DNA of 32,167 nucleotides from Solirubrobacterales bacterium (GTDB lineage: Bacteria; Actinomycetota; Thermoleophilia; Solirubrobacterales; 70-9). The stretch spans positions 1 to 32,167 of the forward strand of contig DATMZR010000014.1 of assembly GCA_035573435.1 (NCBI GenBank), in the 5' to 3' direction. The position numbers and the translations under genes are program-made. The notes under the pieces are model-generated. The model ran no database searches. It was not told the DNA's origin and worked only from the letters and a program-made list of their open reading frames with translations. Below, in pieces: positions 23,536-26,245 of the stretch (its first letter is position 1; the number at the start of each line of letters is the position of its first letter).

Positions 23536-23561
23536 AAGGCCCGGGCGCAAGCCCGGGCCTT
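23536..23561 (-). terminator. Rho-independent terminator of the CsbD-like gene
   Basis: AAGGCCCGGGC (23536-23546) pairs perfectly with GCCCGGGCCTT (23551-23561) around a GCAA tetraloop. Read on the minus strand the stem is followed by TTTGTCTTTGCC, a U-rich tail. It starts 27 bases after the CsbD-like stop, the classic form of an intrinsic terminator and the best one in the window. Confidence 0.85.
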
Positions 23562-23588: not shown

Positions 23589-23777
23589 TCAGGTCCGTCG
23601 CTCGAGGTCTGCGACTTCCTCGGCCTTCTCGTCGGCCTTCTTGTCGGCGCGCTCGAGCTCCTCCTTCTTCTTGCCCTTCTGCTCTTCCTTGCGACCTTCG
23701 CGGCGAAGCGACGGCTCGCCGGCTACGTCGCCCGCGACCTGCTTGGCCTTACCGGTCACTTTGTCTTTGATGCTCAT
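23589..23777 (-). CDS. CsbD-like stress protein
   Basis: Small, highly charged protein of 62 aa. ATG 23777 is chosen over an upstream frame extension because AAGGAGAG lies just before it and because MSIKDKVTGKAKQVAGD matches the CsbD-family start (IKGK-x-KQ-x-G-type helix). The rest is a Lys/Glu-rich helix (EEQKGKKKEELERADK). CsbD in Bacillus is a sigma-B general-stress protein of unknown function. The presence of sigma-B-like promoters 440-490 bases upstream and other stress-type genes nearby supports the same setting here. A possible structured leader (23806-23924) precedes it. Confidence 0.82.
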   Translation of the reverse strand: MSIKDKVTGKAKQVAGDVAGEPSLRREGRKEEQKGKKKEELERADKKADEKAEEVADLERRT

Positions 23778-23805
23778 GGTCTCTCCTTGCCTTGGGTCTA
23801 ATGGC

Positions 23806-23924
23806 GCCCACGTGTTGTCAGGTAACACACGTGGGCTTGAAATATGGAGAGGCGGGATGCCTCAGGCCCTGGCTGCTCCGAAACGGACGCTCCCGGCCGG
23901 ATCGCCCAGGGAACGCCTCTCCAT
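23806..23924 (-). ncRNA. Possible structured leader upstream of csbD
   Basis: On the minus strand this stretch can fold into nested helices: P1 pairs 23914-23924 with 23844-23854 (11 bp, perfect), P2 pairs 23906-23911 with 23867-23872 (6 bp), P3 is a TCCG/CGGA hairpin (23877-23887). Next to them GCCCACGTGT/ACACGTGGGC (23806-23815 with 23827-23836) forms a 10-bp hairpin containing CACGTG on both arms, ending about 29 bases before the CsbD start. It matches no RNA family I know; single 11-bp pairings of this span can occur by chance in GC-rich DNA. Confidence 0.3.
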
Positions 23925-24042
23925 GGGCGCGGTTTCCCCGCCCTGGCCTTTTGAACCATGGAACGAAAGCCTCCTGACAATGCGCCGTCTTCGCGCCGGC
24001 CCGCCTCCGGGAAGGACCTCACCGTCGATTCGGCGGGCGGCC

Positions 24043-24183
24043 TCAGATCGTGCTTCGCCCGCGCCAGCCGGTGAACGCCATCCACAGCGCCACCAAGGCA
24101 AGCACGAAGATGATCGGGTGCACGATCGCGCCGCCAGCGATTGAGATCGCGAGCAGGATGATTCCAAGGATCAGCCACAACAT
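24043..24183 (-). CDS. Small two-helix membrane protein (46 aa)
   Basis: Short gene with a strong ribosome site (AAAGGAGG about 9 bases before ATG 24183). The product is almost wholly hydrophobic: MLWLILGIILLAISIAGG, then HPIIFVLALVALWMAF, ending in a basic tail GWRGRSTI. Two membrane helices separated by a short turn are expected. It resembles the tiny hydrophobic stress proteins (DUF5670/Lmo0937-like in style), but I cannot name a family. A GTTTCA-N14-GGGTAG promoter lies 28-53 bases upstream. It may share a transcript with the CsbD-like gene; 23798-24042 holds no supported gene. Confidence 0.75.
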   Translation of the reverse strand: MLWLILGIILLAISIAGGAIVHPIIFVLALVALWMAFTGWRGRSTI

Positions 24184-24210
24184 GTCTCTGCCTCCTTTCG
24201 GGGGCGCCAC

Positions 24211-24236
24211 CTACCCCGCCAGCTTTCCGTTGAAAC
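24211..24236 (-). promoter_or_regulatory. Sigma-B-like promoter, minus strand
   Basis: Read on the minus strand, GTTTCA (24236-24231) is followed after 14 bases by GGGTAG (24216-24211), close to the general-stress sigma-B consensus (GTTT-N12-16-GGGTA). It lies 28 bases before the 46-aa membrane-protein start. Confidence 0.6.
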
Positions 24237-24242
24237 GCAACC

Positions 24243-24267
24243 GTTTGCCACTGGGGTGAAGGGGTAA
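24243..24267 (+). promoter_or_regulatory. Sigma-B-like promoter, plus strand
   Basis: GTTTGC (24243-24248), a 13-base spacer and GGGTAA (24262-24267) match the sigma-B pattern. It is placed 53 bases ahead of the coiled-coil gene at 24321 and back to back with the minus-strand element, 6 bases apart at the -35 ends. Confidence 0.65.
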
Positions 24268-24320
24268 CCGCGAGGACCCACGACGGTAAATGGGACAGTC
24301 AACCGGAAGGAGGTTGAGCC

Positions 24321-24690: not shown

Positions 24691-25224
24691 GTGCATGCTC
24701 ATCGAGATCTGCTCGACATCTACCTCAGCGACCACTTCGCTGGTGCGACCGCCGGCCTGGACCTGGCAAAGCGTATGTCGGGGGACTCGCCGGACGGCCC
24801 CCTGAGCGAGATCGCGGCCGAAATCGAGTCTGACCGCCAGACCCTGCGTGACTTGATGGCGGCTCTGTACCTGAGACCGTCCCTGCTGAAGACGGCGATC
24901 GGCTGGTTCGGTGAGAAGGCGGGCCGGATCAAGCTCAACGGCCGAGTATTCGGCCGATCCCCACTCAGCAGTCTTCTCGAGCTGGAGCTGTTGATTACAG
25001 GAGTCAGCGGCAAGCTTCAGCTCTGGCGAGCTCTCGCCGCGGTCGTCCCGGCGGACTCGCGTCTCGAGCAGTTCGATTTCGCGGCGCTTGGCCAGCGCGC
25101 CGAAGAGCAACGCCGACGACTCGAAGAGCTGCACGAACGGGCAGCCCGCCAGACGCTGGGCGGCATGTCGATAGGCGCGCGCGAAAGTCGCGTTTCACTG
25201 GAGAGACCTGGGGTAGGCGATTGA
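24691..25224 (+). CDS. Helical protein of unknown function
   Basis: About 177 aa, taken from GTG 24691, 7 bases after the previous stop; an open frame runs further upstream inside the previous gene but that part looks unlike protein. The product reads HRDLLDIYLSDHFAGATAGLDLAKR, then EIAAEIESDRQTLRDLM, GWFGEKAGRIKLNGRVFGRSPLSSLLELELL, and ends with a charged helix EEQRRRLEELHERAAR (all quoted in part or short). This pattern suggests a four-helix bundle, perhaps ferritin-like in overall form, without visible metal ligands. I recall similar hypothetical proteins in actinobacteria but no function. No clear ribosome site; coupling to the upstream gene is likely. Confidence 0.7.
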   Translation: MHAHRDLLDIYLSDHFAGATAGLDLAKRMSGDSPDGPLSEIAAEIESDRQTLRDLMAALYLRPSLLKTAIGWFGEKAGRIKLNGRVFGRSPLSSLLELELLITGVSGKLQLWRALAAVVPADSRLEQFDFAALGQRAEEQRRRLEELHERAARQTLGGMSIGARESRVSLERPGVGD

Positions 25225-25259: not shown

Positions 25260-25892
25260 ATGGCTCAGACCAATGCAAAAACGACCAAAAGGCGCCCGGC
25301 CGCGGCCAAGCGGACCCGTAGCTCGAGCCAAGGTGGCAGGGCCGGGTCGGCCAACGGAGCGGGTGGTGGGACACGGGCACGCTCGCAACGCCGGTCCAGT
25401 GGCGCTCGGAGCTCAGGTGCAGCCACACGCTCTCGCTCTCGCTCGCGCTCGCGCAGCGCCGCTCAGAGCCGCTCACAGGCGGTGAGGGGAACCGTCCGGA
25501 CTCGGGCGCAGGAGACGGGGCAGGCCGTCGAGCGAGTCGCGAAGAGCACCGGCCAGACTGTTGGAAAGGCAGCCGGCAAGGCCAAGGGCCCGGCGATCGC
25601 AGGTGGCGCCGCCCTCGCAGGACTCGCCGGAGGCCTCGCGCTCGCCAAGGGCCGCGTCAAGACTCGCAGAGTCTTTGGTGTGCCAGTGCCCCGTCGCAGC
25701 AAACTCACGAAGACCGGCAAGAAGACCGGCAAGGCGCTTGGGCACGTTGCCGCTCAGGTCGGCTCGACGAGCCAGCAGCTCGCGGTGCTGAATGAGGAGG
25801 TTCGCCGCACTCGCGAACAGGCTGACAAGACGAATCGCTCACCGGTGGAGGTGCTCCTGTCAGGCCTCACCAACCGCAAGCTCGGGGGCTGA
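25260..25892 (+). CDS. Basic protein with Arg-Ser repeats
   Basis: Very basic protein, 210 aa from ATG 25260 (AGAGG 6 bases upstream; a TTG 13 codons earlier overlaps the previous stop). Residues 1-75 are low-complexity Lys/Arg/Ser/Gly, including five perfect Arg-Ser dipeptides (57-66). A helical stretch (80-110) with GQAVERVAKSTGQTVGKAAG is followed by a Gly/Ala hydrophobic segment (112-129), then a basic part RRVFGVPVPRRSKLTK and a C-terminal helix. The first part looks like a nucleic-acid- or anionic-polymer-binding tail; the hydrophobic segment could dip into the membrane. It is translationally coupled to the next gene by TGATG (25890-25894). No family recognised. Confidence 0.75.
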   Translation: MAQTNAKTTKRRPAAAKRTRSSSQGGRAGSANGAGGGTRARSQRRSSGARSSGAATRSRSRSRSRSAAQSRSQAVRGTVRTRAQETGQAVERVAKSTGQTVGKAAGKAKGPAIAGGAALAGLAGGLALAKGRVKTRRVFGVPVPRRSKLTKTGKKTGKALGHVAAQVGSTSQQLAVLNEEVRRTREQADKTNRSPVEVLLSGLTNRKLGG

Positions 25893-26245
25893 TGGCGACC
25901 GCGACTGAGAGCGCTGCCCGCCTCGGGCCATACGTCGAGCGGCTGCTCCAAAACGCCTACGTGCAGGACAACCTCCTCGACGCGGTCGAGAACCTGCGCG
26001 AGGCCTACGAGCGCGCCCAGAAGCGTCGCGTCGAGCCCGCTCGCGACGAGAAGATCCGTCACCAGCTGCGCCAGGCGGCGCTCTCGCTCAAGGAGGCAGG
26101 TGAGGCGCTCAAGAGCGGCCGCCAGAAGCCCAGGAAGCACCGCGCCAACCGAATGCTGATCGTCGCCAGTCTCGGCGCTGTCGGAACGGCCGCCGCCTTG
26201 GCAGCCAGCGAGGAGTTCCGAAGCAAGCTGTTCGATTCACAGTGA
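25892..26245 (+). CDS. Helical protein with C-terminal membrane segment
   Basis: 117 aa. The first 80 residues are charged and helical (YVERLLQNAYVQDNLLDAVE, AYERAQKRRVEPARDEKIR), then a basic stretch SGRQKPRKHRANR leads to a hydrophobic segment (about 88-106, MLIVASLGAVGTAAALAAS), suggesting a C-terminal membrane tail. Both ends are coupled: TGATG with the RS-repeat gene and GTGA (26242-26245) with the DUF4235 gene. The three products are likely made in fixed ratio and may act together at the membrane. No family recognised. Confidence 0.75.
   Translation: MATATESAARLGPYVERLLQNAYVQDNLLDAVENLREAYERAQKRRVEPARDEKIRHQLRQAALSLKEAGEALKSGRQKPRKHRANRMLIVASLGAVGTAAALAASEEFRSKLFDSQ

What the first reader, a model, noticed from the sequence alone, without database searches (positions are those of the whole stretch)
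24211..24267. Back-to-back sigma-B-like promoters driving a stress cluster in both directions
GTTTCA-N14-GGGTAG (minus) and GTTTGC-N13-GGGTAA (plus) lie in one 57-base stretch in the 137-base gap between two small membrane-protein genes, each at a suitable distance from its start. A CsbD-like gene, a typical sigma-B target, lies on the left side. This suggests all genes from about 23.6 to 26.5 kb form one general-stress regulon block.
Basis: partly seen in the sequence, partly recalled or inferred. Interest (0 to 1): 0.6.

Follow-up and report, generated by a model that had tools for sequence, protein, structure and literature searches.

The report
Two-way stress promoter for membrane genes

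Summary
GTTTCA-N14-GGGTAG (minus, 24236-24211) and GTTTGC-N13-GGGTAA (plus, 24243-24267) lie in the 137-base gap between a 46-aa membrane protein gene and a 120-aa membrane/coiled-coil protein gene, each followed by a Shine-Dalgarno site. A third perfect site (25192-25215, plus) starts the DUF4235 operon. Three such sites never occurred in 900 simulated windows, and the genome holds only 28. The genome (Thermoleophilia-type MAG) encodes four SigB/SigF/SigG-type sigma factors and a partner-switching module. The motif follows the genes even where neighbourhoods differ: homologues of the 120-aa protein have GGGTA upstream in 19/23 cases (1.8 expected), csbD genes in 23/31 (1.7 expected). Across relatives, start codons peak 10-11 nt after GGGTA (27 of 98 sites), as expected if the motif sets the transcription start, often leaderless. 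'One block' is only partly supported: it is three transcription units, and csbD here has no consensus promoter of its own. This is a new instance of a known kind. By-catch: about seven candidate small RNAs behind the same motif, including a paralogous trio without an Rfam match.

The parts
24211..24236 (-). SigB/SigF-type promoter Pm: GTTTCA-N14-GGGTAG; predicted start about 24201
   Evidence: read; perfect motif, one of 28 in the genome; the start rule 10-11 nt after GGGTA comes
24243..24267 (+). SigB/SigF-type promoter Pp: GTTTGC-N13-GGGTAA; predicted start about 24277
   Evidence: motif upstream of 19/23 homologues of the downstream gene; congener G002 keeps GGGTAG with a GATTCA -35
25192..25216 (+). 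third promoter P3: GTTTCA-N13-GGGTAG, inside the non-conserved C-terminal tail of the preceding ORF; predicted start about 25226
   Evidence: tail absent from most relatives in alignment A2
24043..24183 (-). TM46: 46-aa hydrophobic membrane protein, first gene behind Pm
   Evidence: homologues in G003, G065, G069 and G078; the G003 homologue is the second gene behind another motif copy
23589..23777 (-). CsbD-like protein (62 aa), probably read through from Pm or from an own degenerate promoter
   Evidence: Pfam CsbD 30 bits, below cut-off; congener homologues have perfect sites directly upstream
23536..23561 (-). intrinsic terminator behind csbD, end of the minus-strand unit
   Evidence: 11-bp stem followed by a T-rich tail
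23775..23935 (-). structured gap between TM46 and csbD (two hairpins; 10-bp palindrome GCCCACGTGT..ACACGTGGGC); role unknown
   Evidence: z -2.66; palindrome unique in the genome
24321..24683 (+). TMcc120: N-terminal membrane helix plus charged coiled-coil-like tail, first gene behind Pp
24691..25224 (+). P5: conserved actinobacterial protein of unknown function, starts 7 nt after TMcc120, probably co-transcribed
   Evidence: no Pfam or NCBIfam hit
25260..25892 (+). SR210: basic Ser/Arg/Ala-rich protein (210 aa), first gene behind P3
   Evidence: no family hit
25892..26245 (+). P117: 117-aa protein, start overlaps the previous stop
   Evidence: P117-DUF4235 pair also in G027, L098
26242..26517 (+). 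DUF4235 membrane protein, last gene of the P3 operon
   Evidence: Pfam PF14019, 53.6 bits

Best explanation
The 57-base stretch is a pair of divergent promoters read by an RNA polymerase carrying a SigB/SigF-type alternative sigma factor. Under stress, a SpoIIE-type phosphatase activates a STAS anti-anti-sigma protein, which pulls the RsbW-like kinase off the sigma factor (partner switching). The freed sigma factor directs transcription leftwards into TM46 and probably through to csbD, and rightwards into TMcc120 and P5; a third copy at 25192 starts the SR210-P117-DUF4235 operon. The two -35 boxes are 6 bp apart and the predicted starts about 76 bp apart, so two polymerases probably compete for the site. 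Shown: the motif, its rarity, its recurrence upstream of homologous genes, and the presence of SigB/F-type sigma factors and of partner-switch components in the genome. Inferred: which of the four sigma factors acts, the stress signal, read-through to csbD, and the competition.
For: Motif and spacing match B. subtilis SigB (GTTTaa-N13-15-GGG(A/T)A(A/T), PMC7824861) and the mycobacterial SigF -10 GGGTA (PMC6448022). Clustering: 3 sites in 1 kb against 28 in 2.58 Mb. Four SigBFG-like sigma factors at 222-231 bits. A STAS-sigma-STAS row with a SpoIIE/GAF/PAS phosphatase and an RsbW-like HATPase nearby, the last behind a motif copy, as expected for feedback. Phylogenetic footprint: TMcc120 homologues 19/23 with GGGTA and 13/23 with the full motif, against 1.8 and 0.45 expected; csbD 23/31 and 13/31 against 1.7 and 0.2. 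Congener csbD genes have perfect sites, in G003 directly behind a SigBFG-type gene that has its own site. Start codons peak 10-11 nt after GGGTA (27 of 98 sites).
Against: No transcript data. csbD in this window lacks a consensus promoter. TM46 homologues give only 2 nearby -10 boxes among 6 matches, two of them weak. DUF4235 genes rarely show a full motif (2/30). The motif also occurs by chance: one of the genomic sites lies in the 16S rRNA gene. The sigma factors fall just below NCBI's SigBFG cut-off (234).
Confidence: 0.88

Rival explanations
1. Only the promoters are real; the neighbourhood is a loose cluster of separately controlled stress genes rather than one regulon block, and csbD and P5 are driven by other promoters.
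For: The homologues are scattered in congeners: TMcc120 sits between mazG-like and enolase genes in G002, TM46 behind another gene in G003, csbD next to a sigma gene in G003. The window csbD has its own 265-bp structured upstream gap.
Against: Wherever they sit, most of these genes keep a site of the same type, so they appear to share a regulator even when dispersed.
Confidence: 0.3
2. The sites are chance matches in GC-rich DNA.
For: The backward control still gives 7-12 sites per genome, and one site is in the 16S gene.
Against: Simulations, clustering, recurrence upstream of homologues, and the start-codon peak.
Confidence: 0.03
3. The sites are read by a different sigma group (ECF or WhiG/FliA type) or are operator sites for a repressor.
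For: None found here. FliA/WhiG-type models score the same sigma proteins only weakly.
Against: GTTT/GGGTA is the SigB/SigF signature in the literature, the sigma proteins score best against SigBFG models, and the fixed 10-11-nt distance to leaderless starts fits a -10 element, not an operator.
Confidence: 0.05

Closest known systems
SigB general stress regulon of Bacillus subtilis (PMC7824861)
   Same: -35 GTTT, -10 GGGTA, 13-15 nt spacer; csbD and rsbV/rsbW are members; partner-switching control
   Different: Here four SigBFG-like sigma factors, divergent promoters with -35 boxes 6 bp apart, frequent leaderless genes, and target membrane proteins of no named family
SigF regulon of mycobacteria (PMC6448022, PMC8557902)
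   Same: GGGTA -10; actinobacterial SigF/RsbW/STAS logic; a SigF-dependent small RNA (F6/SfdS) is known there; leaderless transcripts are common in mycobacteria
   Different: Orthology of the sigma factors was not tested; the target genes of this window (TMcc120, TM46, P5) were not seen as SigF targets in the passages read

Membership tests
SigB/SigF-type promoter | -35 GTTT and -10 GGGTA with 13-15 nt between hexamers | tested here: met
   (N14 and N13; N13 in the third site); consensus
SigB/SigF-type promoter | rare in the genome and over-represented against a composition-matched control | tested here: met
   28 against 7; 0 of 900 simulations
SigB/SigF-type promoter | conserved upstream of homologous genes | tested here: met
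SigB/SigF-type promoter | transcription starts there and depends on the cognate sigma factor | not testable with these tools
   needs RNA and a mutant; indirect support from the start-codon peak
SigB/SigF/SigG sigma factor (TIGR02980) | score above NCBI's subfamily cut-off of 234.35 bits | tested here: not met
   own genome 222-230 bits, G003 233.9 bits: best-scoring model but just below cut-off; hence 'SigB/F-type', not a named member
Partner-switching control | RsbW-like kinase, STAS antagonist and SpoIIE/PP2C phosphatase present | tested here: met
   (contig C36)
General stress regulon | induced by salt, heat or stationary phase | not testable with these tools
   no expression data
CsbD family (PF05532) | score above the Pfam gathering cut-off of 40 bits | tested here: not met
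   30.1 bits in the window; congener homologue in G003 45.9 bits

The most novel reading that the evidence does not exclude
An uncultured Thermoleophilia-type lineage runs a SigB/SigF-type stress regulon whose core is a set of small membrane and coiled-coil proteins, many translated from leaderless messages, plus a lineage-specific set of about seven small RNAs, three of them paralogues carrying both an SD-like loop (GGAGGAGA) and an anti-SD loop (CCUCCCCCC), all switched on by one motif; the window's divergent pair forces its two sides to compete for polymerase.
Probability: 0.4. Interest if true: 0.55.

Novelty: new member of a known kind. Interest (0 to 1): 0.42.

Why it matters
SigB/SigF stress regulons are known from Bacillus, Listeria and mycobacteria; I found no description of one in Thermoleophilia in the few literature searches made here. 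The motif gives a way to list candidate stress genes of these mostly uncultured bacteria from sequence alone. It ties protein families without known function (TMcc120-like, and TM46 in part) to the stress response. The leaderless start rule and the associated small RNA candidates make direct experimental predictions.

Tried and rejected
P5 homologues in 80 named genomes (many of them Streptomyces) rarely have the motif directly upstream (4/80 against about 1.5 expected); P5 is a second gene here, so this is not decisive. The RNA trio was sought in 80 relatives: only own-genome copies are convincing; one weak G029 match (28.9 bits) has no promoter motif and was dropped. No Rfam family for the RNAs in the loci scanned, or for the window except one tRNA. 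A sigma-70 scan found no housekeeping promoter in the region. A degenerate site before csbD (GTTCAA-N13-GGGGAA-like, 23956-23934 minus) was considered; such relaxed matches are common by chance, so it is not claimed. The palindrome between TM46 and csbD is unique in the genome, so no repeated operator is claimed. The 98:2 motif-to-control ratio is biased by how loci were fetched and is not used; only the start-codon distance is.

Full report
What was checked. The two sites are exactly as described: GTTTCA-N14-GGGTAG on the minus strand (24236-24211) and GTTTGC-N13-GGGTAA on the plus strand (24243-24267), in the 137-base gap between start codons at 24183 and 24321. Both downstream genes have a strong SD (AAAGGAGG at 24198-24191; AAGGAGG at 24307-24313). 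A third perfect copy at 25192-25215 (plus) was found by a genome-wide search; it lies in the non-conserved tail of the P5 ORF and precedes the SR210-P117-DUF4235 genes.

Is it more than chance? In 900 Markov simulations of the window (orders 1-3) the mean number of perfect sites is 0.05-0.07; none had three sites, and none had two within 60 bp. The 2.58-Mb genome has 28 sites with N15/16 between GTTT and GGGTA, against 7 for the pattern read backwards. Three of the 28 lie within 1 kb here. Some genomic sites are surely chance: one lies in the 16S rRNA gene.

Where the window comes from. Named relatives of P5 include many Solirubrobacterales and Thermoleophilaceae MAGs, so the window is probably from a Thermoleophilia-type actinobacterium; the genome is a 43-contig assembly, 97% complete.

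Sigma factor. Four proteins score 222-231 bits against SigBFG (TIGR02980), their best family, just under the 234-bit cut-off. On contig C36 one sits between two STAS proteins; nearby lie a SpoIIE/GAF/PAS phosphatase and an RsbW-like HATPase (HATPase_c_2, 84 bits) whose ORF follows a motif copy. In two relatives of the same family (G004, G022), ORFs that resemble RsbW by eye follow the motif as apparently leaderless genes (not run against Pfam). On contig C13 a divergent Crp-type gene next to another sigma gene has the motif. In congener G003 a SigBFG-type gene with its own motif copy is followed directly by csbD with another.

Phylogenetic footprint. csbD genes: 23/31 have GGGTA within 250 bp and 13/31 have G.TT-N14-17-GGGTA, against 1.7 and 0.2 expected from the flanks of the same loci; most -10 boxes lie 37-75 bp before the match. 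Homologues of TMcc120: 19/23 and 13/23 against 1.8 and 0.45. TM46 homologues are few; 2 of 6 have a nearby -10, and in G003 TM46 is the second gene behind a motif copy. DUF4235: 15/30 for the -10 against 3.7, only 2/30 for the full motif. The neighbourhood itself is not conserved in congeners, so the motif follows the genes, not the locus.

Start position. Among 98 non-redundant GTTT-N15/16-GGGTA sites in the fetched loci, ATG or GTG codons occur 27 times at 10-11 nt after GGGTA, against 0-6 at any other single position. This is what a -10 element followed by leaderless genes predicts. It puts the starts of the window promoters near 24201, 24277 and 25226, giving leaders of about 18, 44 and 34 nt (inference).

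What the block is. Three units: minus TM46 (then probably csbD, ending at the terminator 23561-23536); plus TMcc120-P5 (7-nt gap); plus SR210-P117-DUF4235 (overlapping ORFs). csbD here has no consensus site in its 265-bp upstream gap, which instead can fold into two hairpins (z -2.66). So the 'single block' claim is plausible but not shown.

Mechanism. Stress, then phosphatase, STAS, RsbW release, free SigB/F-type sigma, and transcription both ways; the signal and the identity of the acting sigma factor are inferred from the known systems. The -35 boxes are 6 bp apart, so simultaneous binding of two polymerases is unlikely (inference from typical footprints).

Comparison. Motif and spacing fit B. 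subtilis SigB (PMC7824861) and the mycobacterial SigF -10 (PMC6448022). It works like those; formal membership of the sigma factors in NCBI's SigBFG family narrowly fails the cut-off.

By-catch. Several motif copies precede non-coding stretches that fold into hairpins ending in terminator-like stems (z -3 to -4.8). Three are paralogues with no Rfam match in the loci scanned and no convincing copy in 80 relatives. M. tuberculosis has a SigF-dependent small RNA, F6/SfdS (PMC8557902), so this is a parallel, not a proof.

Noticed in passing
L073 5389-5506 (+), L078 6382-6501 (-), L086 6824-6941 (+) (own genome C36, C37, C21): Three paralogous ~118-nt non-coding elements directly behind perfect SigB-like sites; hairpin 1 has a GGAGGAGA loop, the terminator-like hairpin a CCUCCCCCC loop (complementary to each other and to SD sequences). 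No Rfam match in the scanned loci, no convincing copy in 80 relatives.
   Followed up: partly
L089 4346-4440 (+), L089 14770-14670 (-), L075 6025-5930 (-), L085 6873-6975 (+): Four further candidate small RNAs behind SigB-like sites, ending in strong terminator-like hairpins, three of them with C-rich stretches.
   Followed up: partly
98 motif sites in fetched loci: Start codons peak 10-11 nt after GGGTA (27/98): leaderless genes look common in this regulon.
   Followed up: yes
L125 and L126 (relatives G016, G006): The motif stands 10 nt before ORFs whose N-terminus looks like region 1.1 of a primary sigma factor, so the housekeeping sigma gene may itself be stress-induced. Judged by eye, not run against Pfam.
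   Followed up: no
window 23775-23935 (-): Structured TM46-csbD gap with a 10-bp palindrome GCCCACGTGT..ACACGTGGGC, unique in the genome; possible attenuator or regulator site.
   Followed up: partly
G000 C36:2840-6399 (L072): Second stress-like cluster: SigBFG-type gene, small membrane ORF, P5 paralogue, DUF892 protein and a 109-aa protein behind a SigB-like site (L072 6399 minus).
   Followed up: partly
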